DNA of 64,000 nt from Hexactinellida sp. DTS-2022 (lineage: Eukaryota > Porifera > Hexactinellida): NCBI GenBank assembly GCA_028753945.1, contig JAPNXP010000001.1, positions 620,001 through 684,000 on the forward strand, in the 5' to 3' direction. A program made the position numbers and the translations under genes. Positions within the stretch are counted from its first letter, which is position 1. Each line of letters starts with the position of its first letter. Shown one piece after another: positions 1-64,000 of this stretch. The notes under the pieces are model-generated. The model ran no database searches. It saw only the letters and a list, made by a program, of their open reading frames with translations, and was not told the DNA's origin.

Positions 1-478
1 CTGTTAATATTTCTGTGTACACTAAAGTGGGAAGAGGTCCCGACTATGTAACTAATCAGAGGACAATCGAGGATGGTAGGTTTTAATTCCTTCGCTACTT
101 TTCTGATTTATTTATCTGACTCTGTTACTCGGATTATCTGTCTTATTTAATTATTCTGCACTCCTTTAGTGCCATCTGCCACTCCCACCTCTCTGATTGC
201 TAATGCCATCTCTCCCAACATCATCAACACAAGTTGGGAGAACCCCCCTCCCTACCACTTGGGTGGAGTGATCACAGCCTACACACTCACGTACAGAGGC
301 TTGGAGAGAGACACTCCTCTGAAGACAATCGTGGTTCCTGTCCGGAACGGAAGTGTCTACATCACCCCTGCTCTTGTTGGGTTGCAGGAAGACACATCTT
401 ATTTCATTTCTGTCAGAGCCCACACAACTGTCGGGACTGGTCCTATTCTCAGCACAACTGTACACACTCCTGAAGATG
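1..478 (+). CDS. Gene A: end of an FN3 exon (1-75) and B-type FN3 exon (170-478)
   Basis: The first exon is cut by the window edge and keeps only the last strands of an A-type FN3 (YTKVGRGP motif). The second is a full B-type domain of 103 codons with the strand-B Trp (NTSWENPP), the LTYRGLERDT stretch and the HTPED end. The intron between them is 94 bp. Codon G|TG across the splice restores Val, confirming phase 1. Confidence 0.88.
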
Positions 479-3400
479 GTAAGTTTCTTAGATTTTCTAT
501 TCTGCTATTTTTATTATTGGCATTTTATTCTCTTTGACACTAAGTTACTAACACTAAGGGACCTTCAAATTTGCTCATTTTGCTGGATTCCGTTGAATTG
601 ATTTGTATATGCATTGGAATCAATCTTTGTTTCTTTAACCCATATTTTTCATTTCTGTACTTTTCCAAAGCTTTTTAATCCAAACTAAACCTTTAGTTTA
701 GTACCTAAATACTTGTTTGAGACTTAGTTTTTTATATTTTTCCAATGTAATTAAAAACATTTATTATTTCCCCCTAAATTTATACGAATATTAGTTTTGG
801 ATCTCCAGTTCGGACTATGTTGGTTCTGATTAGCGAGGGTGTACTATACTACATGGTTTCTGTTCATTATTTAGTTCCCTCCTCTTCTGTCCGTAACCTA
901 ACTACCTCAACAAAGCAACAGAATGCTACATCTATACTGGTTACTTGGGATGTACCAGTGTTGAATGACTTAAATGGTGTTCTGTTGAACTACTCAATAT
1001 TCTATTTCGGTTTGGAGATTGATACAGTTCCCAGAGTGATCTATCTGTCTCATCCTAATCACACCAATCAGTCTATTATTCTGACTGGTCTAGAAGAGTA
1101 CACGACTTACTCTATTATAGTCTCACCTTATACAAAGGTGGGCAGAGGTCCTGATGCTGTTGTCACACAGAGAACCAACCAAGACGGTGAGTATATCCAT
1201 TCATGAATGGACATCACATAGTACTTAGCTTTATGAATGTTCTACTTTAGTTCCAACTGATGTTCCCACTTCATTCTCCGCTAATGCCATCTCTCCTAAC
1301 ATCATCAACACAACTTGGGAACCTCCAACTGCTTACCACTTGGGTGGAGTGATCACAGCCTACACACTGACATACAGAGGCTTAGAGAGAGACACTCCTC
1401 TGAAGGTGAAAATCCTGACAGTCCTGAACGGAATTATCTACATCACTCCTGCTCTGACTGATTTGCAGGAAGACACTCGCTATGTGATATCTGTTCGAGC
1501 TAACACGAGTGTGGGAGCAGGTCCTTGGACCACTCTCACTGTTCACACTCCTGAGGATGGTGAGTTTCATTGATTTATATATTTCCTAATTTCTCCAATT
1601 GGACTCTATTCACTTCAAATCCTTTGATTCAATTTAAACTTTGTTGAAACTTATCTAATTGATGGTGCAAACTAGAAACCAAATTCCATTTATCAATAAT
1701 CCGTTATGGCACGTCGCTTTCAGCAAGTTGATGTGATGATGACACGTCAAAAATATTTGTTTACAATTTATGAATTCAATAAATCGAAAGTATTGGTTTT
1801 GGCTTGTGTTTGGAGATTGGCAATATGTGGAGAATAAATGCTGGCTTATAACTTTTTATTTTGAAACTCAAGCTAGTATAACTTTGAAAGGAATGGGTTG
1901 GAAAGTAGCTGGCAACATTGCAAAAAATCTTTAAAATCCGAAACATCTTTCTGAAATGGTTTAACACCTTTATAGTGATGACCACGTAGGGAAAAAATCT
2001 GAAATTACAGCTGTGCCTGCAACATTTTATTTTGGAGGCACTATCAATCGACCAACCACCAAGATATAGTACCTCCAAAGGAAAATGCTGTGTCACAGCT
2101 GTAATTTCAGATTTTTTATTCTATATATGTGACAGCTAATGTATTTACAGTTGTGCATCTTATGATAATTTCTTTCCTTCGTCATGCAATAAAACTTTTC
2201 ACCAACTAAATCGGTAAATTATTCGTTTGTCCTATGTTTAATTAGTAACACGTGCATGTTACACGTGAGTGATAATTTACGTTTTATACAATTCTACCCG
2301 CATAATTACAAATTTGTATGACAAATCAAAGTTTTGTCATTCAATCATATTTTTTGCATATTTTTATTTAAACAAGTTGGTCTATTTCAACCATCTTGTT
2401 TGGTTAGACGAAAATATTAATTAGTTGTCCCGAAAGTTGATTTAGAAAATTGTATTTCATCAAAAACTAAAATATATGGTTTTATTCCCTTGTTAATATC
2501 GATTTATGTCAAGTGTTATATATTTCTTCTCCAGTTCCTTCCTCTTCTGTCCGTAACCTAACTACCTCAACAACACAACAGAATGCTACATCTATACTGG
2601 TTACTTGGAATGTACCAGTGTTGAATGACCTGAATGGTGTTCTGTTGAACTACTCCATCAACTACTCTGGTATCGAGATTGATACAGTTCCCAGAGTGAT
2701 CTACCTGTCTAATCCTAATCTCACCAATCAGTCTATTACTCTGATTAATCTAGAAGAGTACACGACTTACTCAATCAATGTGTCTGCTTACACGAAAGTT
2801 GGCAGAGGTCCTGATGCTGTTGTCACACAGAGAACCAACCAAGACGGTGAGTATATCCATTCATGAATGGACATCACATAGTACTTAGCTTTATGAATGT
2901 TCTACTTTAGTTCCAACTGATGTTCCCACTTCATTCTCCGCTAATGCCATCTCTCCTAACATCATCAACACAACTTGGGAACCTCCAACTGCTTACCACT
3001 TGGGTGGAGTGATCACAGCCTACACACTGACATACAGAGGCTTAGAGAGAGACACTCCTCTGAAGGTGAAAGTCCTGACAGTCCTGAACGGAAGTATCTA
3101 CATCACTCCTGCTCTGACTGATTTGCAGGAAGACACTCGCTATGTGATATCTGTTCGAGCTAACACGAGTGTGGGAGCAGGTCCCTGGACCACTCTCACT
3201 GTTCACACTCCTGAAGATGGTGAGTACCCTTGTGTAGTGAATAATTGGGGGGTATACTCTTATACTTTGGTTTTAAAATATTTGTCTTTTGTATCACTAG
3301 TAAGTTAATCGATCGAATATGATGCATGCGAACTCTAAGCTATTTAGACCTTTTCATACAGTTATGTATTTCAAGTCACTGCAACAATTCATATATTATA

Positions 3401-6400
3401 CTTGCAGTCCCGACTGCTTATAGTGATCAAGTCAAATTGTTCCAATTTAACAAATTACATATGTAGGTTTTGTTTGAGTTAATTTGCTTATTATGAAGTC
3501 TCTCTATTATGACACAATTTTGGTCCATGATATTCATAATAAATCAACTTGACTGTAACAGGGGGGGGGGGGGGGGGGGGGGTCAATCTTAAGAATACTA
3601 ACCCATAGGTGACTTCATGGAAAAATATATATTTAGGGCATACCCACCACCCCCCCTCACGAAGTACCAAGTACTTAACGAATTTATTGCTTTTGGACCC
3701 CTACACCCCTTCAGTATTTGCCACAAGTAACACTCTGGAGTTGTCACCTATGTCAGATTAGCATAAATTGATACGAAGTTAATTACATCTGGTTCTGAAG
3801 TCCTCCTATGAGCATTTTTACCCAAAACACACTTTTTAACTTTTTACAATTTTAATTAGTCAGCAATTCTCACCTTTAGGTGTGATAAGATTTTAAAAAT
3901 TACCCTTAGTGTAAATTCTTGATAATTTGGTGCAACATTTCGCAATAATATTGATTCGTACCATCCATGAAGTACCAGGTACTTCATGGATGTACCTTTA
4001 AAAATGGGACCTACCACCTGGCTATGGGTCAAGTATCTGCCGATTGACCCACCCTGCTGTATATGTACTGCCCTGATTTTTATTTTTATTTGAACCTGGT
4101 GGCCTGACTACACATTATTTAGGGAATCACTTTATAAATTGACATTTTCAAGAAGAATTTTTTTAATTTTCGTTTCATACACTGATTTTCTCATAATCCT
4201 AGTTTTATTAATTGGGAATTTTTGAAGCCGAAAAGTCACTTTTGGTTCTTAATTAATCCGCTAAACCAGTGGTTCTCAACCTTTTCATTATTACCGAACC
4301 CTGGTAGTACTAAAAATCTTTTGCGACCCAAAACTTGTACTATTTACCCTGATACTATTATCGTGATATGTTACGCTGCGGATCCCTTTTGGGTCGCGGA
4401 CACACCAGGTTGGGAACCACTGCACTAAATAATATTTTGGAGCGTCTGTTCTTTCCCCTGAATGAGCTCACTCGTTACAATCGAATAACTATTGCTGCAA
4501 CTTGCGAGTGATACATAGTTTCGCCTGGAATAATTTCAGTTACGTAGTGTAATTATCACCCGCAAGACGTCAATTCAACGTGTTTTTCAATGAATTACCT
4601 TTAAACTACTTCCACAATTATGTTTTATATATATACATTTCATAGTTCCTTCTTCTTCTGTCCGTAACCTAACAACATCAACAACACAACAGAATGCTAC
4701 ATCTATACTGGTTACTTGGGATGTACCTGTGCTGAATGACCTGAATGGTGTTCTGTTGAACTACTCCATCAACTACTCTGGTATCGAGATAGATACAGTT
4801 CCCAGAGTGATCTACCTGTCCAATCGTAGTCTCACCGATCAGTCCATTACTCTGATTAATCTAGAAGAGTACACGACTTACTCAATCAATGTGTCTGCTT
4901 ATACGAAAGTGGGCAGAGGTCCTGATGCTGTTGTCACACAGAGAACCAATCAAGACGGTGAGTATATCCATTCATGAATGGACATCACATAGTACTTAGC
5001 TTTATGAATGTTCTACTTTAGTTCCAACTGATGTTCCCACTTCATTCTCCGCTAATGCCATCTCTCCTAACATCATCAACACAACTTGGGAACTTCCAAC
5101 TGCTTACCACTTGGGTGGAGTGATCACAGCCTACACACTGACATACAGAGGCTTAGAGAGAGACACTCCTCTGAAGGTGAAAATCCTGACAGTCCTGAAC
5201 GGAAGTATCTACATCACTCCTGCTCTGACTGATTTGCAGGAAGACACTCGCTATGTGATATCTGTTCGAGCTAACACGAGTGTAGGAGCAGGTCCTTGGA
5301 CCACTCTCACTGTTCACACTCCTGAGGATGGTGAGTTTCATTGATTTATATATTTCCTAATTTCTCCAATTGGACTCTATTCACTTCAAATCCTTTGATT
5401 CAATTTAAACTTTGTTGAAACTTATCTAATTGATGGTGCAAACTAGAAACCAAATTCCATTTATCAATAATCCGTTATGGCACGTCGCTTTCAGCAAGTT
5501 GATGTGATGATGACACGTCAAAAATATTTGTTTACAATTTATGAATTCAATAAATCGAAAGTATTGGTTTTGGCTTGTGTTTGGAGATTGGCAATATGTG
5601 GAGAATAAATGCTGGCTTATAACTTTTTATTTTGAAACTCAAGCTAGTATAACTTTGAAAGGAATGGGTTGGAAAGTAGCTGGCAACATTGCAAAAAATC
5701 TTTAAAATCCGAAACATCTTTCTGAAATGGTTTAACACCTTTATAGTGATGACCACGTAGGGAAAAAATCTGAAATTACAGCTGTGCCTGCAACATTTTA
5801 TTTTGGAGGCACTATCAATCGACCAACCACCAAGATATAGTGCCTCCAAAGGAAAATGCTGTGTCACAGCTGTAATTTCAGATTTTTTATTCTATATATG
5901 TGACAGCTAATGTATTTACAGTTGTGCATCTTATGATAATTTCTTTCCTTCGTCATGCAATAAAACTTTTCACCAACTAAATCGGTAAATTATTCGTTTG
6001 TCCTATGTTTAATTAGTAACACGTGCATGTTACACGTGAGTGATAATTTACGTTTTATACAATTCTACCCGCATAATTACAAATTTGTATGACAAATCAA
6101 AGTTTTGTCATTCAATCATATTTTTTGCATATTTTTATTTAAACAAGTTGGTCTATTTCAACCATCTTGTTTGGTTAGACGAAAATATTAATTAGTTGTC
6201 CCGAAAGTTGATTTAGAAAATTGTATTTCATCAAAAACTAAAATATATGGTTTTATTCCCTTGTTAATATCGATTTATGTCAAGTGTTATATATTTCTTC
6301 TCCAGTTCCTTCCTCTTCTGTCCGTAACCTAACTACCTCAACAACACAACAGAATGCTACATCTATACTGGTTACTTGGAATGTACCAGTGTTGAATGAC

Positions 6401-9400
6401 CTGAATGGTGTTCTGTTGAACTACTCCATCAACTACTCTGGTATCGAGATTGATACAGTTCCCAGAGTGATCTACCTGTCTAATCCTAATCTCACCAATC
6501 AGTCTATTACTCTGATTAATCTAGAAGAGTACACGACTTACTCAATCAATGTGTCTGCTTACACGAAAGTTGGCAGAGGTCCTGATGCTGTTGTCACACA
6601 GAGAACCAACCAAGACGGTGAGTATATCCATTCATGAATGGACATCACATAGTACTTAGCTTTATGAATGTTCTACTTTAGTTCCAACTGATGTTCCCAC
6701 TTCATTCTCCGCTAATGCCATCTCTCCTAACATCATCAACACAACTTGGGAACCTCCAACTGCTTACCACTTGGGTGGAGTGATCACAGCCTACACACTG
6801 ACATACAGAGGCTTAGAGAGAGACACTCCTCTGAAGGTGAAAGTCCTGACAGTCCTGAACGGAAGTATCTACATCACTCCTGCTCTGACTGATTTGCAGG
6901 AAGACACTCGCTATGTGATATCTGTTCGAGCTAACACGAGTGTGGGAGCAGGTCCCTGGACCACTCTCACTGTTCACACTCCTGAAGATGGTGAGTACCC
7001 TTGTGTAGTGAATAATTGGGGGGTATACTCTTATACTTTGGTTTTAAAATATTTGTCTTTTGTATCACTAGTAAGTTAATCGATCGAATATGATGCATGC
7101 GAACTCTAAGCTATTTAGACCTTTTCATACAGTTATGTATTTCAAGTCACTGCAACAATTCATATATTATACTTGCAGTCCCGACTGCTTATAGTGATCA
7201 AGTCAAATTGTTCCAATTTAACAAATTACATATGTAGGTTTTGTTTGAGTTAATTTGCTTATTATGAAGTCTCTCTATTATGACACAATTTTGGTCCATG
7301 ATATTCATAATAAATCAACTTGACTGTAACAGGGGGGGGGGGGGGGGGGGGGGTCAATCTTAAGAATACTAACCCATAGGTGACTTCATGGAAAAATATA
7401 TATTTAGGGCATACCCACCACCCCCCCTCACGAAGTACCAAGTACTTAACGAATTTATTGCTTTTGGACCCCTACACCCCTTCAGTATTTGCCACAAGTA
7501 ACACTCTGGAGTTGTCACCTATGTCAGATTAGCATAAATTGATACGAAGTTAATTACATCTGGTTCTGAAGTCCTCCTATGAGCATTTTTACCCAAAACA
7601 CACTTTTTAACTTTTTACAATTTTAATTAGTCAGCAATTCTCACCTTTAGGTGTGATAAGATTTTAAAAATTACCCTTAGTGTAAATTCTTGATAATTTG
7701 GTGCAACATTTCGCAATAATATTGATTCGTACCATCCATGAAGTACCAGGTACTTCATGGATGTACCTTTAAAAATGGGACCTACCACCTGGCTATGGGT
7801 CAAGTATCTGCCGATTGACCCACCCTGCTGTATATGTACTGCCCTGATTTTTATTTTTATTTGAACCTGGTGGCCTGACTACACATTATTTAGGGAATCA
7901 CTTTATAAATTGACATTTTCAAGAAGAATTTTTTTAATTTTCGTTTCATACACTGATTTTCTCATAATCCTAGTTTTATTAATTGGGAATTTTTGAAGCC
8001 GAAAAGTCACTTTTGGTTCTTAATTAATCCGCTAAACCAGTGGTTCTCAACCTTTTCATTATTACCGAACCCTGGTAGTACTAAAAATCTTTTGCGACCC
8101 AAAACTTGTACTATTTACCCTGATACTATTATCGTGATATGTTACGCTGCGGATCCCTTTTGGGTCGCGGACACACCAGGTTGGGAACCACTGCACTAAA
8201 TAATATTTTGGAGCGTCTGTTCTTTCCCCTGAATGAGCTCACTCGTTACAATCGAATAACTATTGCTGCAACTTGCGAGTGATACATAGTTTCGCCTGGA
8301 ATAATTTCAGTTACGTAGTGTAATTATCACCCGCAAGACGTCAATTCAACGTGTTTTTCAATGAATTACCTTTAAACTACTTCCACAATTATGTTTTATA
8401 TATATACATTTCATAGTTCCTTCTTCTTCTGTCCGTAACCTAACAACATCAACAACACAACAGAATGCTACATCTATACTGGTTACTTGGGATGTACCTG
8501 TGCTGAATGACCTGAATGGTGTTCTGTTGAACTACTCCATCAACTACTCTGGTATCGAGATAGATACAGTTCCCAGAGTGATCTACCTGTCCAATCGTAG
8601 TCTCACCGATCAGTCCATTACTCTGATTAATCTAGAAGAGTACACGACTTACTCAATCAATGTGTCTGCTTATACGAAAGTGGGCAGAGGTCCTGATGCT
8701 GTTGTCACACAGAGAACCAATCAAGACGGTGAGTATATCCATTCATGAATGGACATCACATAGTACTTAGCTTTATGAATGTTCTACTTTAGTTCCAACT
8801 GATGTTCCCACTTCATTCTCCGCTAATGCCATCTCTCCTAACATCATCAACACAACTTGGGAACTTCCAACTGCTTACCACTTGGGTGGAGTGATCACAG
8901 CCTACACACTGACATACAGAGGCTTAGAGAGAGACACTCCTCTGAAGGTGAAAATCCTGACAGTCCTGAACGGAAGTATCTACATCACTCCTGCTCTGAC
9001 TGATTTGCAGGAAGACACTCGCTATGTGATATCTGTTCGAGCTAACACGAGTGTAGGAGCAGGTCCTTGGACCACTCTCACTGTTCACACTCCTGAGGAT
9101 GGTGAGTTTCATTGATTTATATATTTCCTAATTTCTCCAATTGGACTCTATTCACTTCAAATCCTTTGATTCAATTTAAACTTTGTTGAAACTTATCTAA
9201 TTGATGGTGCAAACTAGAAACCAAATTCCATTTATCAATAATCCGTTATGGCACGTCGCTTTCAGCAAGTTGATGTGATGATGACACGTCAAAAATATTT
9301 GTTTACAATTTATGAATTCAATAAATCGAAAGTATTGGTTTTGGCTTGTGTTTGGAGATTGGCAATATGTGGAGAATAAATGCTGGCTTATAACTTTTTA

Positions 9401-12400
9401 TTTTGAAACTCAAGCTAGTATAACTTTGAAAGGAATGGGTTGGAAAGTAGCTGGCAACATTGCAAAAAATCTTTAAAATCCGAAACATCTTTCTGAAATG
9501 GTTTAACACCTTTATAGTGATGACCACGTAGGGAAAAAATCTGAAATTACAGCTGTGCCTGCAACATTTTATTTTGGAGGCACTATCAATCGACCAACCA
9601 CCAAGATATAGTGCCTCCAAAGGAAAATGCTGTGTCACAGCTGTAATTTCAGATTTTTTATTCTATATATGTGACAGCTAATGTATTTACAGTTGTGCAT
9701 CTTATGATAATTTCTTTCCTTCGTCATGCAATAAAACTTTTCACCAACTAAATCGGTAAATTATTCGTTTGTCCTATGTTTAATTAGTAACACGTGCATG
9801 TTACACGTGAGTGATAATTTACGTTTTATACAATTCTACCCGCATAATTACAAATTTGTATGACAAATCAAAGTTTTGTCATTCAATCATATTTTTTGCA
9901 TATTTTTATTTAAACAAGTTGGTCTATTTCAACCATCTTGTTTGGTTAGACGAAAATATTAATTAGTTGTCCCGAAAGTTGATTTAGAAAATTGTATTTC
10001 ATCAAAAACTAAAATATATGGTTTTATTCCCTTGTTAATATCGATTTATGTCAAGTGTTATATATTTCTTCTCCAGTTCCTTCCTCTTCTGTCCGTAACC
10101 TAACTACCTCAACAACACAACAGAATGCTACATCTATACTGGTTACTTGGAATGTACCAGTGTTGAATGACCTGAATGGTGTTCTGTTGAACTACTCCAT
10201 CAACTACTCTGGTATCGAGATTGATACAGTTCCCAGAGTGATCTACCTGTCTAATCCTAATCTCACCAATCAGTCTATTACTCTGATTAATCTAGAAGAG
10301 TACACGACTTACTCAATCAATGTGTCTGCTTACACGAAAGTTGGCAGAGGTCCTGATGCTGTTGTCACACAGAGAACCAACCAAGACGGTGAGTATATCC
10401 ATTCATGAATGGACATCACATAGTACTTAGCTTTATGAATGTTCTACTTTAGTTCCAACTGATGTTCCCACTTCATTCTCCGCTAATGCCATCTCTCCTA
10501 ACATCATCAACACAACTTGGGAACCTCCAACTGCTTACCACTTGGGTGGAGTGATCACAGCCTACACACTGACATACAGAGGCTTAGAGAGAGACACTCC
10601 TCTGAAGGTGAAAGTCCTGACAGTCCTGAACGGAAGTATCTACATCACTCCTGCTCTGACTGATTTGCAGGAAGACACTCGCTATGTGATATCTGTTCGA
10701 GCTAACACGAGTGTGGGAGCAGGTCCCTGGACCACTCTCACTGTTCACACTCCTGAGGATGGTGAGTCTCATTGATTTATATATTTCCAATTTCTCCATT
10801 AATACTCTATTTACTTTAATTATTCGATTCATTTTGAAATTTGTGGATACTTATCTCTTTGATGGTGCAAGCTAGAAACAAAATCCAATTATCTATCATC
10901 CGTTAGGGCATGTCAGTTTCAGCAATTTGAGGTGATGATGACATCTACAAATTATGTGTTTACCAAGGTTGAAACCGGTCGAATCGAATATTGGTATTCA
11001 TGAATGGTTGCCCTACCTTCGTTATACGAATACTGATATTTGATTCAGTAACCGAATACGAATACTGATATTCAATTCAGTAAACGAATGCGAATACTGA
11101 TAATATTCGCTTGCTTCAACCGTATACGAATGCTGATAATATATGGTTACGTCACCCGAATACCAGGGAATTATCCAGGAGCGCGCGATACGTTCCTTTT
11201 GGAGTATGATTAAGAAAAGATTAATTAGGAGCGCGAAAAATTGGAATCTTCTCCTATACCGTAACATTAATTTGTGATTTAGTTGTATGAAGATTGGATC
11301 AGACCAGGATTAGGAGCATAATTACAAATGGCTGTATTATACACTGCCGAATATGAATATTGATAATATTCGGTGGGAGACCGAATACCGAATAGTGATA
11401 TCATATCATATCATATCATATTAGGTTAGCCACCGAATATCAACTATTCGGCAAATAATATTCTGTTCAACCAAATATATCAGTATTCGGTTTCAACCTT
11501 GGTTTTTACAATTTTGTGAATTCAATAATTCGAAAGTATTGGTTGGTGTTTGGAGATCTCCCAAACTTGTAATGAATATGTGTTGGCTCATTCTTGTTAT
11601 ATTGTTACTCAAACTAGTATATCTATGAAAGGAAATGGGTTAGAAAGAAACTGGCAACACTGCATAGGATCTTTGCATTCCGAAACACCTTTCTGAAATG
11701 GTTGATCACCTTTATATTGATTATGACTTTACAAAAAATCATAAATTATAGCTGTATTGACAGCATCTTCTTTTGGATGCACTTCAATCAACCAACTACC
11801 AAAATATTGTGCCTCCAAATGAAAATTCTTTCGGCACAGATGCAATTTTGGATTTTTTTAATTTAAAAAGTTGGGATATTTCAAAAGTCTTGTTTAGTAT
11901 TAGAAAAATATTATTTATTTTTTGGCCCCAGATGCTGAGTTTAGAGAGTTTTATTTCATCAAAAACTGAAAACTATGATATTATTCACTACGTATATTTA
12001 TATTTGATTTGTGTCAGGTGTTATATATTTTTCCCCAGTTCCTTCCTCTTCTGTCCGTAACCTAACAACCTCAACAACACAACAAAATGCTACATCTATA
12101 CTGGTTACTTGGGATGTACCTGTGCTGAATGACCTGAATGGTGTTCTGTTGAACTACTCCATCAACTACTCTGGTATCGAGATAGATACAGTTCCCAGAG
12201 TGATCTACCTGTCCAATCCTAGTCTCACCGATCAGTCTATTACTCTGATTAATCTAGAAGAGTACACGACTTACTCAATCAATGTGTCTGCTTACACGAA
12301 AGTGGGCAGAGGTCCTGATGCTGTTGTCACACAGAGAACCAATCAAGACGGTGAGTATATCCATTCATGAATGGACATCACATAGTACTTAGCTTTATGA

Positions 12401-15400
12401 ATGTTCTACTTTAGTTCCAACTGATGTTCCCACTTCATTCTCTGCTAATGCCATCTCTCCTAACATCATCAACACAACTTGGGAACCTCCAACTGCTTAC
12501 CACTTGGGTGGAGTGATCACAGCCTACACACTGACATACAGAGGCTTAGAGAGAGACACTCCTCTGAAGGTGAAAGTCCTGACAGTCCTGAACGGAAGTA
12601 TCTACATCACTCCTGCTCTGACCGATTTGCAGGAAGACACTCGCTATGTGATATCTGTTCGAGCTAACACGAGTGTGGGAGCAGGTCCCTGGACCTCTCT
12701 CACTGTTCACACTCCTGAGGATGGTGAGTTTCATTTATTTATATATTCCAATTTCTCCTATGAGACTCTATTTACTTCAATTTTTCGATTTATTTCGCAA
12801 CTTTGTTGAAACTTTTCTCATTGATGGTGCAAGCTAGAAACTAAAATTCCCATCGCCAATCATCCGTTAGGGCATTTTGATTCTAACCCTTTGAGGTGAC
12901 TATGACATCGCGAAGATATGTGTTTTACAATTTGTGAATTCAATAATTCGAAGTATTGGTTGGTTTTTGAGATCACCCCACTTGTAAAGATAAATGCTGC
13001 TCATCACTTATTATATTGTTGTTCAAACTTGTATATGTCTATGAAATGAAATGGGTTTGAAAGAACTGGCAGCACCTAAAAGGATATTTACCTTCCGAAA
13101 TACCGTTCTGAAATGGTTATCACCTTTATAGTAATGATGACGTGACAAAAAAATCCAAATTATAGCTGTGCCGACAGCATTTCCTTTGCAGGCACTATCA
13201 ATTAACCAACTACCAAATATTTTGCCTCCAAAAGAAAAACGGTCGGCACAGATACATTTTTTGATTTTTCTTAATTTTTTAAAGTTTGTCTATTCAAATG
13301 TATTGTTTATTATTACAAAACAATAGTTAGTTGGCCCAAAAAGTGTAGTTCAGAAAATTGTATTTCATCAAAAGCTCATCACTATTGTTTTATTCCCTTG
13401 TTAAAATCAATTAATTTTAGGTGTTATATATTTATTCTCTAGTTCCTTCCTCTTCTGTCCGTAACCTAACAACCTCAACAACACAACAGAATGCTACATC
13501 TATACTGGTTACTTGGGATGTACCAGTGTTGAATGACCTGAATGGTGTTCTGTTGAACTACTCCATCAACTACTCTGGTATCGAGATTGATACAGTTCCC
13601 AGAGTGATCTACCTGTCTAATCCTAATCTCACCGATCAGTCTATTACTCTAATTGATCTAGAAGAGTACACGACTTACTCAATCAATGTGTCTGCTTACA
13701 CGAAAGTGGGCAGAGGTCCTGATGCAGTTGTCACACAGAGAACCAATCAAGACGGTGAGTATATCCATTCGTGAATGGACATCACATAGTACTTAGCTTT
13801 ATGAATGTTCTACTTTAGTTCCAACTGATGTTCCCACTTCATTCTCCGCTAATGCCATCTCTCCTAACATCATCAACACAACTTGGGAACCTCCAACTGC
13901 TTACCACTTGGGTGGAGTGATCACAGCCTACACACTGACATACAGAGGCTTAGAGAGAGACACTCCTCTGAAGGTGAAAGTCCTGACAGTCCTGAACGGA
14001 AGTATCTACATCACTCCTGCTCTGACCGATTTGCAGGAAGACACTCGCTATGTGATATCTGTTCGAGCTAACACGAGTGTGGGAGCAGGTCCCTGGACCA
14101 CTCTCACTGTTCACACTCCTGAGGATGGTGAGTTTTCTCTTTATTCCCTTATTTCAACATTTCTCTTTGTTGCCTATGTTTAATACTTCGTGTTGTTTAC
14201 CTTTTAAATTTCCCTCTTATAATGCGTAGTTCTTTGCCTTTTCTGCAACTGTCGACTTCACTTAATTTGGCACATCCTATATTCGGGCAAATATCCACCT
14301 GCTCACTTGTTTTAATGTGCTCTTCACGCTGTTAATTTTCTATAAATTAGGAAAAACTGCCTTCTACCAACATTTTCCTATTAATGAGTCGACTTTTATC
14401 ACTTCAGAATTTCCTGCCCATTATCATATTGCATGTATTTGATTTACTTAGCGCAATTAGAGATTGTTTGTTGCTTAGCTAGAATAAGTCTTTCACTTCA
14501 TATATGTAATTGTAATTATTTATTTATTATGTTGACAAATACAGTAGACGCTGTCTCGTTAATGCGAACACCAGTGGACGTCGAATATGTTCCTATTTTC
14601 CGGAATTCGTATTAACCAGAGTAATTTGCATACCTTTGTTTAGGAAAGGGAATTTCAAGTTTGCCCCTTATCAGTGTTTGTCTTAACGAAAGTATAGTTA
14701 TATATTAAAATATCATAATATTGGCTTGACGTGAATCGAATGAGATTGTTTTAGAGCTGAACCCTGCCATTTATGATTTCTATATCTTTAATTTATTGCT
14801 GCACTTAGTATACCTGTATTCAAATTTGTACAAATGTTTGTGCTGGAATATATTGTCATCAATCGCAATAAGTTTGAAATTGTAATTTAAGAATGCCAAT
14901 CGTTGTTTTTCTTTATTCGATTTATTGTGACAGCTAAATTATTTACAGTTTCAAGAAGATCTTTCCTTCGTCATGCAATAAAATATTTCACCAACTAAAT
15001 ATATAAATTGTTCGTCTGTCCTCTTTTTAACACGTACGTGTGATACGTTAGTACATATTCTATGTTATACGTGAGTAATAATTCACGTAGTATACAACAC
15101 TGGCACTAGTTTATACTATACAAATTATAATAACAGTTCCATTATTCAATCATATTTTTAATTTAAAAGAAAAATTGGTCTATTTCAATCGTCTTGTTTT
15201 AGTAGTATATTACGAAAACGATATTAGTTTGGCCAAAATCTCTGAGTTTAGAAAATTTTATTTCATCAAAATCTCAAAAACATCATTGTATTTCGCTCTT
15301 GATATCGATTATGTCAGGTGTTATATATTTATTCTCCAGTTCCTTCCTCTTCTGTCCGTGACCTAACTACCTCAACAACACAACAGAATGCTACATCTAT

Positions 15401-18400
15401 ACTGGTTACTTGGGATGTACCAGTGCTGAATGACCTGAACGGTGTTCTGTTGAACTACTCCATCAACTACTCTGGTATCGAGATTGATACAGTTCCCAGA
15501 GTGATCTACCTGTCTAATCCTAATCTCTCCGATCAGTCTATTACTCTGATTAATCTAGAAGAGTACACGACTTACTCAATCAATGTGTCAGCTTACACGA
15601 AAGTGGGCAGAGGTCCTGATGCAGTTGTCACACAGAGAACCAATCAAGACGGTGAGTATATCCATTCATGAATGGACATCACATAGTACTTAGCTTTATG
15701 AATGTTCTACTTTAGTTCCAACCGATGTACCCACTTCATTCTCCGCTAATGCCATCTCTCCTAACATCATCAACACAACTTGGGAACCTCCAACTGCTTA
15801 CCACTTGGGTGGAGTGATCACAGCCTACACACTGACATACAGAGGCCTAGAGAGAGACACTCCTCTGAAGGTGAAAATCCTGACAGTCCTGAACGGAAGT
15901 ATCTACATCACTCCTGCTCTGACTGATTTGCAGGAAGACACTCGCTATGTGATATCTGTTCGAGCTAACACGAGTGTGGGAGCAGGTCCCTGGACCTCTC
16001 TCACTGTTCACACTCCTGAGGATGGTGAGTTATTTTTCACAATTACAGCTTGGTTAAGGAATTGTTATCGCACTAAGTCATAAGTAGTAATAAATGCTAG
16101 GTCTCGTTATAACCTAATTCTACTGTATACGTATTTATTTATTTACTACTAGTTTAATTGTGAGTACAGTGCAACCTCTATAAGTGGGGTAGCTTGGGAC
16201 GGGCAAAATTTGAATTGCACCCTATTCCCCGAATATACTTTTCAATTGGATGAACACTACTTTTGGTCATCTTATACAATATTTACATACAACGCTCCCA
16301 TTCGATTCTTACTAGTTACTACAGTAAAACCTCGTTGATACGAACACCAACGGAAGGTAGAAATCTGTTCGTTTTACCGGAATTCGTATTAACCGGAGTA
16401 ATACCCATTGAATAGCCATTGTAGGGACCTGACTTTGTGGAACTGTTTGTTCGTCTTATCCGGAAATTTGTCTCAACCGTATTTATACTATCGAGATTCT
16501 ACTGTATTTGTATATTCTAACAATTGAGTTTTTGCTGATACGTACGCAATCTACAGTCGACGATTTTATCCACAAACATTAGAGTAGTCGCCGAAAATAT
16601 TTGTTATGTAGAACTCGAGAGTGGATTTATTTGAAATCCGGTTTAATTTTATAAGTATTTTGTTAGGATTTGTCCATACCCCCATTTATAGAAGTCATTT
16701 TGCATGTGGATGATAACTCCTTGAAAATTAAGGTCCCCCATTCCCCCACTTCCCCGCTAATAGAGGTTCATTTGTATGGAAATGAACGAAAATGGCCCAA
16801 AATTACCTGCTTATAGAGGTTTCCTATTTATAGAGACCCCACTTATAGAGGTTGCACTAACTTCTTTCCTATATAGTATATGTGTGATGTTTACTGTATT
16901 GTTTTAGTTCCTTCCTCTTCTGTCCGTAACCTAACTACCTCAACAACACAACAGAATGCTACATCTATACTGGTTACTTGGGATGTACCAGTGTTGAATG
17001 ACCTGAACGGTGTTCTGTTGAACTACTCCATCAACTACTCTGGTATCGAGATTGATACAGTTCCCAGAGTGATCTACCTATCTAATCCTAATCTCACCGA
17101 TCAGTCTATTACTCTGACCAATCTAGAAGAGTACACGACTTACTCAATCAATGTGTCTGCTTACACGAAAGTGGGCAGAGGTCCTGATGCAGTTGTCACA
17201 CAGAGAACCAACCAAGACGGTGAGTTACTAGTTCTATTCACAGCATGTTAATCTGTACTAGGGACTATTTCAGTTTATAGTATGTTTATATTGCCTTGTT
17301 ATTTTCTAGTTCCTTCTGCCATTCCTACCAACTTCCAGATTCGTGCCATTTCTTTAACTATTGTTAACGTTTCCTGGGATCTTCCTACCGTCTACCATCT
17401 GAATGGAATCATTACAGATTTCACGCTAACCTACGCAGGCGTGGAGAGAGACACCAATTTGAGGACCATTATCGTTCCTGTTGCGAATGGAACTGATTAC
17501 GTACTGCCTGCACTCACTGGCTTGGAGGAGAACACTAATTATGTCGTGACAGTACGCGCTAGCACTGCTGTAGGGATTGGACCAGTAACCACTCTATCTG
17601 TTCTGACTCCTCAGAATGGTGAGTTTTGTCTGATTAACAGATAATATAATTTAACTAATCAAGAGTTGGATTGCAATATCCAGGGGTGGATCTAGCCACT
17701 AAAATTTTGGGGGGTGCAGTTTGGTGGGGGTGCAAATATTGGATGACTTTTTTTCATTATATATTCTCGGCCAAGTGTTCAACAAAATAGGACTACAATT
17801 CAAAATGGAATGAAATTTTCTAATAGGATAAAATTTTGGGGGGGTGCGCACTCTAGATCCACCCCTGGCTATCTCACAAATTGGTATACCGTATTCCTTC
17901 GAATAAGCGCCCGGCGCTTATTGTTTTCATGGGCCAAATTTATCCTGATTTTTTTTGAAAAATCCTGAATATAATATTTAGGTCGGTTATAATGGTCCTC
18001 ACCGACAGTATACATACCGAAGTTGCCAAACCAATGGAATTACACTCCAGTTATAAACTATTGTGTTTCAATTTTATCATGCCAATGCCATTTTATTGAT
18101 CCAGCGCTTATTCGGGGAAATACGGTTTCTATTAACTCTATAATTAAACTTGTATTTCAGCTCCAAAGGGAGCTCCTAGGAACTTCTCAGCAGTTGCTCT
18201 TAACAACACCGCTATTGAGGTCAAGTGGTCAGTCCCCATTATCAATGATCTGGACGGAAATCTGACTGGTTACATCATCACGTACTACGGGTTTGTCATT
18301 GACACGGAAGAGAGAACCGTACCAATATCTACTTCGAGTCATGATGATCAATCACAGATCCTGACTCCTCTGGAAGACTACACTTTCTACTCCATCTCTG

Positions 18401-21400
18401 TACAGGCAATAACTGTAGGCTCTGGCCCTTCAGTCTCCATTACACACCGTACCCTGCAAGCAGGTAAGCTATCATTCAATCGGGTCAGGTATTCTGTATC
18501 TGCATTAATGTGCATGTACGTTATTTAGTGCCCAGTGGCGTCCCCACCAGCCTCGCTGTATCAGCTGTGTCTGCCCGCACCATCTACATAACCTGGTTCC
18601 CACCCTTCTACTCCGACCAGAACGGAGTTATAACGGCCTACACTCTGACCTACCAAGGAATAGAGAGAGACTATGAAATGCGCACAGAGCTAATTTCCGC
18701 ACTTACGGGTCGCTCCAACACCTCTTTTAGTGTAACTAACCTTGAAGAAGATACCACCTTCAACGTCACAATTAAAGCTCACACTGTGATAGGAGATGGT
18801 CCTATGACATCGATGACTGTTCATACTCATGAAAGTGGTGAGGAATTTGTCCATCGCAATTACTATGTGTAATAACTGATTCTTATTTTTATCAATTATA
18901 CTTCTTTAGTTCCTTCTTCTTCTGTCCGTAACCTAACTACCTCAACAACTCAACAGAATGCTACATCTATACTGGTTACTTGGGATGTACCAGTGTTGAA
19001 TGACCTGAACGGTGTTCTGTTGAACTACTCCATCAACTACTCTGGTATCGAGATTGATACAGTTCCCAGAGTGATCTACCTATCCAATCCTAGTTTCTCC
19101 GATCAGTCTATTATTCTGACCAATCTAGAAGAGTACACGACTTACTCAATCAATGTGTCTGCTTACACGAAAGTGGGCAGAGGACCTGATGCTGTTGTCA
19201 CACAGAGAACCAATCAAGACGGTGAGTACCTAATACCTATTTTTTCTCATTTTGAACATGTTGATATTTAATCTAAACTTATTCCTCTTTAGTTCCTATT
19301 GGTGTTCCACTTGATCTCACTGCGTACCCTCTTACTCCTACGATAATTAAAGTTGAATGGAGTGTTCCTAACATTTACTTTCAGAATGGAGTAATTAAAA
19401 GATTCACTCTAAAATACACCAGTATTTCATTTGACGAACATCGAGAATTAGACAGAATTATTCCAGTGGGAGACAACAGTACCCGATTCAGCTTTATTTT
19501 ATTTAACTTGTTAGAAGCTGCGAGTTATCGCATTGATGTTGCTGCTTCAACTGTCGAAGGCATAGGTCCTTTCGGTCAGGTCATGACCACTACCCTCAAT
19601 ACAGGTTTGAATTATATAATAGTAATTGAACTGAAATTACATAGTGATATTGAGAACCAAAGGTCTTTGTCAATAGATCAGGGCCAATTTTATTCACAGT
19701 TTATGCACTATCTGATATAATAATCACAATAAATAAGAATATTTTTCAATTTCTGCTTTCACCGTCCAAAGAATTCAATAAAAAACATAGATTCTTACAT
19801 AGTGTATCCATCTATATGACTTACCGTATTTATTTTGTTATCTTAGGTCCATCTAAAGCACCGCGAAACGTGATTGTCCATCAAATAACTGAAACTACGA
19901 TATATTTAACGTGGCAACCTCCAGAAGACGAGTTTCTGAACGGTGTTTTGGACAAATATGTATTAACATACCAAGGGAAAGAACATGACAGAATGATGCA
20001 TGTATTGGAATTCTTACCTAGTATAGATAAAAGTCTCTCTCACTTACAATCAGCACGTCTGGTTAACTTACAAGAGAACACAACCTATGCAATAACTATT
20101 GCCCTTTTCGCTTCCGGACAAATGAGTCCTCAAGTTAAAATAGTTGAAAGAACTCTGGACACAAGTGAGTAGTTGTACACTGCCAGATTGCATACCAATT
20201 CGTCTGATATTTATTTGATATTTATAATTCTATAGCCCCAAATGCTTCAGTCCAGGCATTAAACTTTACTCTTTCGAGTCCATTCTCTGTCCTCATTCAC
20301 TGGAAAGATGTGCCTTCTATATCACAGAATGGTAAAATTCTATACTACAATCTCACGACTACATTTACAGACAGAAATACTCAGACTCCTCTGCTGAGTA
20401 GTAACTTCAGTTGGACCAATACAACTGGTATCGATGTTAACTACTTCCTACTTAAGGATCTATGGCACTCTGTGGACTTCACAGTTAATGTTACAGCACA
20501 CACTCGACTTGGTTCTAGTCCCTGGGCAACTACTAAATTCCAATTGGTTGAAGGTTTGTTGAATTAATTCTAAATAATTCTTCAGTTCTTTTAATTATTA
20601 TTTTATTTATTAGTTTTTACTGTGCCGATGACTACTATGTAGTGGGCCAGTAGTTAATCACTGCATTTTCTACATTTATGATATCCTATCTATTTTTCAA
20701 CAGAAACTGAACCTCTGATTATCGAACCCGAAAGAGATCAATTCTTTACTCAACCTAAAGGAAAAAAAGAAATAAGAACATTCGATTGTGTTGCTAAAGG
20801 GAACCCAATTCCCTTGGTTAAGTGGTTTAAGACCAAAAAGGATGGACCTGATATTGATTTGAGTATCGGTAATGACAAACCCTATAGGCTTATTATCTCT
20901 GGAAATGAGCTAGTTGGGGGACGCAATGTGTATGTCTGCAATGCTTCAAATAGGGAGGGAGATGTCAATCGTACTGTGAATATCGTAGTTACTACTGACA
21001 TTATTGAAGATGACGTTATTCAACAAACTAATGACGAGATTAATAGGCAAGATACACTGGACAGTGATCAGGCGACTAACCTTGCAAATTTGGTAGATTC
21101 TGTGATTAAGCAAGTCAGATATGATGCTGAAAACGCCACAAACAATGGGACTAATAACAGTGTTGCATTAACTTCAGCTTCTGAGCTGTTCCGTAATGTT
21201 ATTGACAGATGGGATGGCAATGTTCAAAGTGAAAACAAAACAAGTAACAAATCTGTTACTAATCAAGACCAAACTTTGTTCAACACAAACACAGGCTTAA
21301 TCCAACAAACTCAAATTCTCCAGAACGGAACTACTAACGTAACTGGACAAGAAGTAAGTTTGGAATATTTGTACATTTTTCTCATTTAATCTGAATTCTG

Positions 21401-24400
21401 TAAATTTTATATTTAAAGACGTGTCGCATTATTCTTAATGGTTTTCTCCAATAGAATGATACTGTGTGCCCATATCGAACCGACTTTTTCTTCCAAACCA
21501 ACCCGGCTGTCTCAGACGCAATTCGTGCTATCGATACCCTGGTTCCAAAGATTATATCTACTAAGGGCAATAACGGCACTTTTATCCTACGAAATAATGA
21601 CAGTTTCCTCGAGTCTAAAGTTATAAATTTGGCCAACTTTTCTGAACCAAATATGACTTTTCCTGATGATTCCTTTGGAGCAATCGGGGAACATGTGACT
21701 GTACCCGCTGATTTGTTTCAAAACTCAACTGATTCTCCTATACGCGTAAGTACCTCATATCTAATAGTAACTGCCAACATTAAATCAGGTCTCAATTAAT
21801 TCTATACCCTAGGTAACAACGACTATAGTTCCTGGAAATAAGGGAAACTTAACTGGAATAATCTCAGTTGTCCTGACACGAATAGTATCAGGGATTAACT
21901 TGACAAACTCCTCCAATTCAGATTACATACCAATACCAACTTACAACTCTAGGAATGTCACGAATACTTTCTTGAAAATTATAAAGCAATTGGATCATGA
22001 TGTAAGTCTTATTTCTTTAGTTATTACCTAAGTTACAATTTATTTGAATCTATACTTTCTAGATAACCCTTGTCTTCCCAACTGCGCGCCCAGAGGAGGG
22101 GAAGGAGTACGTGTGTTTGTCTCTTGATAATGCCACTGGGAAGTGGGTAAATACAGGCGTCACTACTTTGGGGTTTGATGAGACAACAAACACTACAAGT
22201 TGTAATAGCAGCCACTTGACAAGCTTTGCCGTTCTAATTCAAACTCGAGTGGTGAATGAAACCTTTATTGAGAAGATTATCGGTTCTACCGTCAGCTATT
22301 TCTTACTATCTCTCTCCTTCATTGCCCTCGTCATCACACTACTACTCTATGTTGTCGCTGGGGTGGAATTTATAAAGGTGGAAATGAATATTCTATACTT
22401 TAACTACACGATTGCTCTCTTGATGGCAATAGGATGCTTCATTATTGGGATCGAATCCGTTGTTAATGTTCGTATCCTATGCACAGCGGTTGGACTGCTA
22501 CTACACTACTCTTGGCTGTCTGTATTTTCCTGGAGTCTCTGCAATGGAATTCTTATAATATACCGACTATGGTTTGGTAAGTTATATAAATATAAATTGC
22601 AGTAAATAAATAGCTCAACTTTTTTAAAAATTCTAGATCCAAAACACTAAATTTAAACTTACGGATTTATTATTTATTATTTTTAAATCTCTTTTAGTAA
22701 TGAGCAAAAGAAGGATATGGCCTTACCTGCTAATGCTCGGTTGGGGTCTGCCGTTGCCTGTGGTTATTACCGCTTCCAGCATCAAACAGGCTTCCTACAC
22801 TGGTAACGACACCGGCCACTGCTGGATAGCCACTGAGGGAGGTCTCATCTGGTCCTTCCTGGGACCCGTGTATACGATCCTGGTCATCAACACGGTTATA
22901 CTCGTATCCAGCGCTATTCGTATCGCCACAGCACGAAAGGGGCAAACACAAATGTTGAAGCTTCGCGGCTTTCTTATCAGCGCGGCAGTTCTCACTCCAG
23001 CCCTTGGTTTACCGTGGCTTGTGTCTCTACTTAAATTAACCACAGTTGGGATCACTAACCTTACAGTTCAGTATATCCTGGAAAAGTTCATTGATTGGGT
23101 CTTCATTTGCTTAAATGCACCATCGGGAGTCATATTCCTGATAATTGTAGCACAACGTGTTAAGGAATTCAGAGCGAATAAGCATAGGAAAGAGATCTCG
23201 ACTCGTTTGACCAGTGTTACTGGCGGTACAAATACAATCAGACGTGGGCCTATGCCTTCTGGTGCTAATAAATATCGGAAACCCGCCAGCAAAGTAGCAA
23301 CTAATTCTAATTCTAAGCGTTTGATTCCAGTGCACTCCGAGAGACTCGAGTCAGCGAGATTCGAAAACGAGGTTAATTTTGGCGAGGCTGATAATGACAA
23401 GAGAGAGATTCCTACTAGTCGCCCACCAAGACCAGAACATCCGAAATATTTGAATGACCCTATATCTACACAAAGGTCTATTGACCCAAGCACGTATGTC
23501 TGCGAGGACGTTGATACCGTCCACAAGAATCCACTGTACATCTCCATTGAAGATCTCACGAAAAACTCATCTTCTGACAAAACTAATGAGGAAAATATCA
23601 TCATTACTGGAACAGAAGGGAAAGTAGAGTCTATTTTCCAGAACTTATCCACTATAGAACAAGGTGCTACACCCAAAGAACGCCCAATTATCTTGGAAGA
23701 TCTAGCTATTCCCAATCCGCTTTTCGATGCACTTGAACAAATCGAAGTGGATATGCCAGTCACAACAGCCCTCAGCGCTTCCAAGACCTCACTCCATGCT
23801 TCTACCGTTTCTCTCCACAAGTTATCCTCTGATAAAAGTGCAACATTTGCTAATGTCAACGCCGGTTTAGATCTGGCAGATCAAACTACGATACCTCGCG
23901 TTTCCCCCGCATTTGTTCGAGCATCTGACGAAGGACTGCTGCGACGAAGTCTGAATAAAATTCGCAGTTCTTTCAAGTTAAGTCAAACAAATATTCCTTT
24001 GCCGACTGAGCCAGACACCAGAGTAAGCCCAACTCCGATTGAAGTTCCTCCAAAGCCTAAACAAACTAATACTGTTTACCCAAATAAATATATTGAACAT
24101 CTAAACAAAATTTATATTGAAAAGAAAAGCCTCCCATCAAAGAAGAGCGCTATTTTGGATACTTTAATCACAAAACCGCCCAAACCTGAATCCGTGTCTC
24201 TTGCTCTCACGCCTAAAATCCCAGCCCCATACCCTAGCAGTAGAGTTAAAAACTTAATGCACAAATTTGACAGCATCAACACACCTGAAACGCAACCAAT
24301 TAAGAAACCCCCTGTTAGACCACCGAAATACGTGCCAGCGACAGAAACTTATATACCCCCCATTAAACCAACTCCTGAGGCACCAACGATCAGATCAATT

Positions 24401-26056: not shown

Positions 26057-63994
<37,938 letters not shown>

Positions 63995-64000
63995 GTAGGA

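What the first reader, a model, noticed from the sequence alone, without database searches (positions are those of the whole stretch)
1187..10750. Near-identical 3771-bp tandem repeat adds FN3 domains in fours
Equivalent exons, introns, MITEs and even a 22-G run recur at exactly 3771 bp. From about 2100 onward I saw no difference between copies. Either the expansion is very recent (probably variable in the population), or conversion is constant, or the assembly duplicated one copy. Each copy adds four FN3 domains in frame, so receptor length could vary between individuals.
Basis: partly seen in the sequence, partly recalled or inferred. Interest (0 to 1): 0.72.

Follow-up and report, generated by a model that had tools for sequence, protein, structure and literature searches.

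The report
Freshly duplicated block in giant receptor
A 3,771-base block carrying four fibronectin-type-III exons is repeated head-to-tail, letter-perfect for more than two copies, inside what looks like a very long adhesion receptor gene, so receptor length may still be changing, although only raw sequencing reads can exclude an assembly error.

Summary
Confirmed. At lag 3771 the sequence matches from 872 to 6996 (6,125 bp, 47 mismatches, no gaps) and is exact for 4,914 bp (2072-6985), 22-G runs included. One period adds four phase-1 FN3 exons (414 aa). The context is larger than reported: the exons fit a conceptual adhesion GPCR (window -62314 to 25531) of 118 exons and 13,468 aa without internal stop: signal peptide, two C-type lectins, 114 FN3, Ig-like domain, GPS, 7TM, long tail. 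Two sister genes follow (40 and 30 FN3). Two processes seem to act. Module cores are homogenised: B exons differ about 1.5% whatever the distance or gene, while flanking introns are mostly unalignable. Here the introns are identical too, so the period is most simply a very recent unequal crossover between blocks already 3,771 bp apart. A mobile element on contig 14 carries one such unit between two MITE-like copies, evidence for an array arrangement not present here now. Population variation and assembly duplication could not be tested (no reads), nor transcription. Organism unidentified, perhaps a sponge. New variant of a known kind.

The parts
872..10767 (+). whole region of lag-3771 homology, about 2.6 periods
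2072..5842 (+). period copy 1 (3,771 bp), identical to copy 2
   Evidence: exact match 2072-6985 at lag 3771
5843..9613 (+). period copy 2 (3,771 bp)
9614..10756 (+). partial third copy, 1,143 bp exact
   Evidence: 2072 to 9614, lag 7542, 1,143 bp
1..1524 (+). window part of a second exact repeat (-177 to 1524 equals -10517 to -8816, 1,702 bp, lag 10,340), ending inside the B exon 1251-1559; it holds 45 of the 47 lag-3771 mismatches
875..1186 (+). A-class FN3 exon (divergent subclass) at the left edge of the repeat
1251..1559 (+). B-class FN3 exon
2535..2846 (+). FN3 exon A, period 1 (recurs 6306-6617, 10077-10388)
2911..3219 (+). FN3 exon B, period 1 (recurs 6682-6990, 10453-10761)
3220..4645 (+). 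intron II with 22-G run at 3561 (recurs 6991-8416, run at 7332)
   Evidence: hits to query about 1472-1961 of window:2100-5900
4646..4957 (+). FN3 exon A, period 1 (recurs 8417-8728)
5022..5330 (+). FN3 exon B, period 1 (recurs 8793-9101)
12039..20553 (+). rest of the FN3 exon array of gene 1, to the membrane-proximal FN3
20704..21353 (+). exon with Ig-like domain (I-set 22.3 bits, just under its cut-off of 23.7)
21455..22001 (+). two exons of the presumed GAIN region (21455-21745, 21813-22001)
22063..22576 (+). exon with GPS motif and first TM helices
22698..25531 (+). last exon: remaining TM helices, long cytoplasmic tail, stop
26057..26938 (+). start of gene 2: presumed signal-peptide exon 26057-26108 (by eye) and C-type lectin exon 26570-26938
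26992..64000 (+). FN3 exons of gene 2 (continues beyond the window), with a long repeat-rich presumed intron 34356-61820

Best explanation
The repeat is a very recent tandem duplication of one higher-order unit (A-B-intron I-A-B-intron II) inside the FN3 exon array of a giant adhesion-GPCR gene. Before it, the array already held two nearly identical blocks of about 2 kb (B-intron I-A-B) 3,771 bp apart; mispairing of those blocks and one unequal crossover inserted exactly one unit, four phase-1 FN3 exons, in frame. It is the newest of many ectopic exchanges: A-B cores are kept alike, most likely by gene conversion, within and between three neighbouring genes. SHOWN by sequence: the duplication in the assembly, the in-frame exons, the receptor domains, homogenised cores, exact tracts. 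INFERRED: crossover as mechanism, one long mRNA, length variation between individuals, and function. The likely function is a cell-surface receptor that holds C-type lectin domains at the end of a very long FN3 stalk and signals through a GPS-type tethered agonist, so that exon number sets stalk length.
For: Duplication: exact 4,914 bp; copies 2 and 3 agree with each other at the five sites checked where copy 1 differs (1179, 1323, 1434, 1513, 2071), so a switch point right of 2071 fits a crossover product. Edges lie in homologous FN3 exon/intron sequence. Identical 22-G runs, while the same run in the contig-14 copy is 12 long. Gene: 118-exon model, 40,407-nt CDS, 13,468 aa, only a terminal stop. 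Splice sites were chosen by a script that asked for AG, GT and phase 1, so the 117 of 117 GT-AG introns and 110 of 110 gene-1 FN3 exons divisible by 3 are partly by construction; the independent check is that of 129 FN3 hits covering both ends of the query, 120 have AG and GT exactly at the expected bases, against 0.3% of random places. Lectin_C 66.4, GPS 27.5, 7tm_2 99.6 bits, all above cut-off; best PDB relatives ADGRD1, ADGRL3, ADGRE5. Exchange: 38 A-B modules, diversity about 0.5 in flanks against 0.00-0.03 in the A-B intron and B exon; 413 of 703 pairs with no alignable flank still differ only 1.7% at B fourfold sites; B distance unrelated to genomic distance (rho -0.03) or gene (permutation p 0.46). 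Earlier array turnover: contig-14 composite element.
Against: No reads, depth, second haplotype or transcript was available, so an assembly duplication and splitting of the model into several genes are not excluded. Conversion over a long tract could also make two pre-existing periods identical; an exact 1,702-bp tract shared with a place 10.3 kb away shows that long exact tracts arise here. Consensus polishing could have made near-identical copies exact. The five-site pattern also fits conversion of copy 2 by copy 3. Homogenisation is uneven: A fourfold sites differ about 13%.
Confidence: 0.7

Rival explanations
1. Assembly artefact: the true locus has one period fewer (one full unit plus the older 2-kb partial copy) and the assembler walked the repeat cycle once too often, or polishing made diverged copies identical.
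For: Zero differences over 3,771 bp; edges at repeats are also where assemblers err; the sequencing method is unknown; a second exact tract (1,702 bp) lies beside it.
Against: No N in the 214 kb read. In the shorter structure the exact overlap would be only 1,143 bp (1,690 bp with one mismatch), which long reads would bridge; other long paralogous blocks in the region keep 1% or more differences. None of this replaces reads.
Confidence: 0.2
2. Two old periods kept identical by long-tract gene conversion rather than a recent duplication.
For: Exchange is indicated throughout the cluster, and an exact 1,702-bp tract with a sharp right edge (0 of 1,702 against 45 of 344 differences) lies next to the repeat.
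Against: Elsewhere homogeneity is mostly confined to the A-B core with introns left diverged; here 3,771 bp with both introns, the dispersed element and a 22-G run are identical in register, a longer exact tract than any other in the 214 kb.
Confidence: 0.1
3. The A-B cores are alike because of selection on the nucleotide sequence (for example splicing signals), not by exchange.
For: The 64-bp A-B intron is nearly invariant (24 of 38 modules identical) and mostly holds a 16-bp palindrome (30 of 38).
Against: B fourfold sites are nearly as conserved as the intron while A fourfold sites differ 13%, and B similarity ignores gene and distance.
Confidence: 0.1
4. The 118-exon model is really several genes or many short isoforms, so the repeat does not lengthen one receptor. 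(Compatible with the duplication itself.)
For: No RNA evidence; the FN3 exons are symmetric, so subsets can be spliced in frame.
Against: tblastn with the gene-1 GPS/7TM exons finds no other such exon between -62314 and 22063; the spliced frame stays open.
Confidence: 0.25

Closest known systems
Adhesion GPCRs (class B2), for example ADGRD1 and ADGRL3
   Same: GPS with HLT sequence, secretin-type 7TM, long multidomain ectodomain; best PDB matches
   Different: 114 FN3 domains in one conceptual protein, tandem exon cassettes; no subfamily assigned here (no tree was built)
ADGRV1/VLGR1, called 'the largest aGPCR' in a review (PMC13197933, passages seen)
   Same: giant repeat-domain ectodomain on an aGPCR; human protein about 6,300 aa (recalled)
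   Different: Calx-beta repeats (recalled) instead of FN3; about half as long
Amphimedon (sponge) adhesion GPCRs (PMC4302439, passages and section 8)
   Same: aGPCRs whose domain set includes fn3, Ig and GPS
   Different: no giant FN3 array and no lectin-tipped form mentioned in what I read; the figure itself was not seen
Fungal het-d/het-e WD-repeat genes (PMC1805685, abstract and outline)
   Same: repeats exchanged within and between members of a gene family (concerted evolution)
   Different: those show variable repeat number and four residues under positive selection; here number variation is untested and FN3 pN/pS is 0.23 (A) and 0.49 (B) overall

Membership tests
Adhesion GPCR | secretin-like 7TM domain | tested here: met
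   7tm_2 99.6 bits, cut-off 20.6
Adhesion GPCR | GPS motif before TM1 | tested here: met
   GPS 27.5 bits, cut-off 22.5; HLT in the translation, its role recalled
Adhesion GPCR | GAIN fold around the GPS | tested here: inconclusive
   sequence match extends upstream of the GPS in ADGRL3 entries (query 258-623); no structure predicted
Adhesion GPCR | autoproteolysis and tethered-agonist signalling | not testable with these tools
   needs expression
FN3 domain | match to Pfam fn3 above cut-off | tested here: met
   9 of 10 window exons scanned are above cut-off, 20238-20552 is below (22.9 against 25); both typed A and B queries are above. The count of 114 rests on an HMM built from 172 domains of this same region, domain E 0.01, not on Pfam
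Recent tandem duplication by unequal crossover | head-to-tail copies with edges in homologous sequence | tested here: met
Recent tandem duplication by unequal crossover | copy number differs between alleles | not testable with these tools
   one haplotype only
Concerted evolution (het-d/het-e type) | repeats as similar between genes as within a gene | tested here: met
   B exon mean distance 0.0154 within (402 pairs), 0.0155 between (301 pairs); p 0.46
Concerted evolution (het-d/het-e type) | positively selected codons in the repeat | tested here: inconclusive
   only overall pN/pS computed; no per-site test

The most novel reading that the evidence does not exclude
A receptor longer than any GPCR in what I read, with lectins at the end of a stalk of about 114 FN3 domains, whose length is a heritable and still changing trait: exon cassettes are added or removed four domains at a time by recombination while conversion keeps the domains interchangeable, giving individuals and sister genes (114, 40, 30 FN3) different reach and compliance for sensing carbohydrate surfaces of neighbours, microbes or self.
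Probability: 0.25. Interest if true: 0.85.

Novelty: new variant of a known kind. Interest (0 to 1): 0.6.

Why it matters
If real, this gene is a natural test bed for two questions: how tandem exon arrays stay uniform while changing length, and whether stalk length of an adhesion GPCR tunes force or distance sensing. Copy number can be read directly from long reads of a few individuals.

Tried and rejected
Xenoturbella bocki as source: rejected, because its published assembly (18 megabase-scale scaffolds holding 72 Mb, 43% GC; PMC11521371 passages) does not fit 112.4 Mb in 18 contigs with 36.5% GC in the window. Other clues to the organism: two literature searches for an 18-chromosome or 112-Mb genome (listings with abstract starts, 25 of 91 and 40 of 43 papers shown) gave no fit, though one search listed three sponge genomes with 18 pseudomolecules; 16 homeodomain matches from 21 candidates, few for an animal by recall; no Glyco_hydro_6, a tunicate marker by recall, but nothing rang in the controls either, so this shows nothing; looks for silicatein and GPCR-PIPK gave nothing clear, which if anything speaks against a sponge. 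Sponge remains a guess.

Rfam at gathering thresholds and tRNA scans of the window were empty. Literature searches for FN3 arrays with conversion, aGPCR with allorecognition, and giant FN3/lectin aGPCRs showed no title or abstract start describing such a gene; only the open PMC library was searched, and most listed papers were not opened. PMC6208332 (sponge immune receptors, passages) and PMC12716839 (choanoflagellate GPCRs, passages) did not describe one in what I saw.

A Chordopox_A33R match (19.5 bits, under its cut-off of 22.5) overlaps the lectin domain and was set aside as lectin-fold similarity. No structure was predicted: the rules of that tool, as I read them, accept neither spliced proteins nor loci from the fetch from genomes; I did not try.

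Full report
OBSERVATION. The window is bases 620001-684000 of contig 1 of an unnamed 112.4-Mb, 18-contig genome. At lag 3771 the sequence matches itself from 872 to 6996, 6,125 bp without gaps and 47 mismatches, with an exact stretch of 4,914 bp from 2072 to 6985. The 47 differences are 42 at or before 1179, then 1323, 1434, 1513, 2071 and 6986. The tract is about 2.6 periods long, exact for about 2.3. Of 1,083 maximal exact direct repeats of at least 120 bp in the surrounding 214 kb it is the longest; the longest at a lag that is not a multiple of 3771 is 1,702 bp. The 22-G runs at 3561 and 7332 are equal in length.

WHAT THE PERIOD HOLDS. Each period has four exons, A-B-A-B (2535-2846, 2911-3219, 4646-4957, 5022-5330), with AG and GT sites in phase 1 on both sides, 1,242 nt or 414 aa in all. 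The typed A and B queries match Pfam fn3 (44.8 and 44.9 bits, cut-off 25). Of ten window exons scanned, nine exceed the cut-off; 20238-20552 scores 22.9. Intron I (about 0.97 kb) and intron II (1.43 kb) alternate; intron II contains a dispersed element of about 483 bp with hits on many contigs at 91-95% identity.

THE GENE. I fetched 80 kb to the left and 70 kb to the right (15 stretches; 214 kb with the window, no N). tblastn with two queries gives 180 FN3 hits, all on the plus strand; an HMM built from 172 of these domains gives 184, which a script placed in 172 exons: 114 domains in gene 1, 40 in gene 2, 30 in gene 3. The script chose AG and GT sites in phase 1, so phase and divisibility by 3 are partly built in. 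As a check without that choice, of 129 hits that cover both query ends 120 have AG and GT exactly at the expected bases, against 0.3% of 3,600 random places; over all 180 hits the figure is 123. One gene-2 exon (76324-77013) was fused by the script over what is more likely a short intron, so the gene-2 model is slightly too long. Gene 1 runs from -62314 (about 557.7 kb on the contig) to 25531: 118 exons, 117 of 117 introns GT-AG, 40,407 nt, 13,468 aa and one stop at the end. Its domains are a signal peptide (by eye), two Lectin_C, 114 FN3, an Ig-like domain just below the I-set cut-off, GPS and 7tm_2 above their cut-offs, and a tail of several hundred residues. The best PDB matches are adhesion GPCRs ADGRD1, ADGRL3 and ADGRE5. 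Gene 2 (26057-84770, 5,884 aa, no internal stop) and gene 3 follow on the same strand and begin with C-type lectin exons 95% alike; the gene-3 7TM exons are only 49% and 36% identical to those of gene 1, and its 3' part was not modelled. There is no transcript evidence for any of these models.

TWO KINDS OF EXCHANGE. First, homogenised cores. In 38 A-B modules (28 in gene 1, 7 in gene 2, 3 in gene 3), selected as 312-bp A plus 309-bp B exons less than 120 bp apart, nucleotide diversity is about 0.5 in the aligned 150-bp flanks, which is no real homology for most pairs, 0.02-0.13 in exon A, and 0.00-0.03 in the A-B intron and exon B, with sharp steps at the outer exon edges. For 413 of 703 pairs neither flank can be aligned, yet B fourfold sites differ 1.7% and the A-B intron 1.0%; where flanks align over at least 150 bp, introns differ 15% downstream (98 pairs) and 19% upstream (144 pairs). 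There is some correlation between flank and core divergence in the alignable pairs (rho about 0.33), as shared descent would give. B divergence does not depend on distance (rho -0.03, p 0.46) nor on gene (0.0154 within, 0.0155 between, permutation p 0.46). That is the signature of concerted evolution by ectopic exchange. A fourfold sites differ about 13%, since A exons fall into at least two classes, so homogenisation is not uniform. Overall pN/pS is 0.23 for 54 A exons and 0.49 for 39 B exons: no sign of diversification, though no per-site test was made.

Second, exact long tracts. Window -177 to 1524 equals -10517 to -8816 over 1,702 bp, while the flanks of that pair differ by 45 of 944 on the left (mostly far from the tract) and 45 of 344 on the right. 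Its right end lies in the B exon at 1251-1559, and it contains 45 of the 47 sites at which the first 3771 copy differs from the second; this accounts for the divergent left edge. The 3771 period itself is identical in exons, introns, element and poly-G.

MECHANISM. At the five sites checked (1179, 1323, 1434, 1513, 2071) copies 2 and 3 agree and copy 1 differs. If copies 1 and 3 are the older pair, an unequal crossover to the right of 2071 between them yields this pattern and adds one period. From 1525 to 3214 copies 1 and 3 differ at one position only, so they would be good substrates. With no difference in 3,771 bp, the rule of three puts divergence below about 0.08%. The poly-G agreement points the same way, because the corresponding run in the contig-14 copy is 12 rather than 22 long. 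Larger events are visible too: the 3' ends of gene 1 and gene 2 differ by 76 of 6,766 bases, and alignments at nearly the same lag (58-59 kb) continue with 1.9-2.1% differences into the next gene's start, which fits a tandem duplication of about 59 kb.

A SNAPSHOT ELSEWHERE. On contig 14 a 2,107-bp segment lies between two 198-bp elements in the same orientation (2 mismatches between them). The outer sides carry the 8-bp repeat CCGAAGGA, the inner sides CTGACATA. The segment begins and ends at the same point of intron II and contains one A and one B exon, A with a broken frame. It is 97.5% identical to window 3749-5336 and 96% to 2517-3756. The simplest reading is that a donor array had two successive intron-II copies, each with this element at the same site, and that the pair moved as one composite element. 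The 198-bp element was not found in the 214 kb, so the window's intron II has the empty site; four further full-length copies at 97-99% lie on contigs 8, 1, 16 and 13. So arrays with another arrangement have existed, shown by sequence that depends on the assembly of contig 14 but not on that of the window. It does not prove the present period.

WHAT IT MAY DO. Inference only: C-type lectins at the tip, a stalk of FN3 domains (at about 3 nm each, recalled, some 0.35 micrometre), and a GPS/7TM base suggest a tethered, possibly force-sensitive receptor of glycans. As the domains are kept alike, length rather than sequence diversity would be the varying property.

COMPARISON. A 2026 review calls ADGRV1 the largest aGPCR (PMC13197933, passages seen); the human protein is about 6,300 aa by recall. 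Amphimedon aGPCRs include fn3 domains (PMC4302439, passages and section 8). The nearest evolutionary parallel I found is the fungal het-d/het-e WD-repeat family (PMC1805685, abstract and outline). My searches of the open PMC library showed no title or abstract start describing such a gene; no preprints and few subscription papers are held.

LIMITS. No reads, no second haplotype, no RNA, no relatives. Organism unidentified; sponge is a weak guess (Tried and rejected).

Noticed in passing
L001 (contig 14), 783-3285: Composite mobile element: two 198-bp MITE-like copies with 8-bp target-site repeats carry a captured A-B unit of this gene family.
   Followed up: yes
window -59300 to -58270 (C1 about 560.7-561.7 kb), minus strand: An intron-less reading frame that by eye resembles ribonuclease H2 subunit A lies inside an intron of gene 1; not searched.
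   Followed up: no
window 34356-61820: Long presumed intron of gene 2 with many tandem and dispersed repeats; one ORF (49822-50625, 267 aa) looks like a transposase remnant by eye.
   Followed up: no
window 81658-84770 (beyond the window): The gene-2 tail has an in-frame internal duplication of roughly 95 aa compared with gene 1.
   Followed up: partly
A-B introns, for example window 2847-2910: The A-B introns of the 38 modules are 63-68 bp (35 of 38 are 64); 24 of 38 are identical and 30 of 38 hold the 16-bp palindrome tccattcatgaatgga.
   Followed up: partly
own genome, for example C4:4555285, C16:413636: Some other matches to the 7TM query lie in very long open frames (several of 2,161-3,192 aa), suggesting intron-poor receptors.
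   Followed up: no
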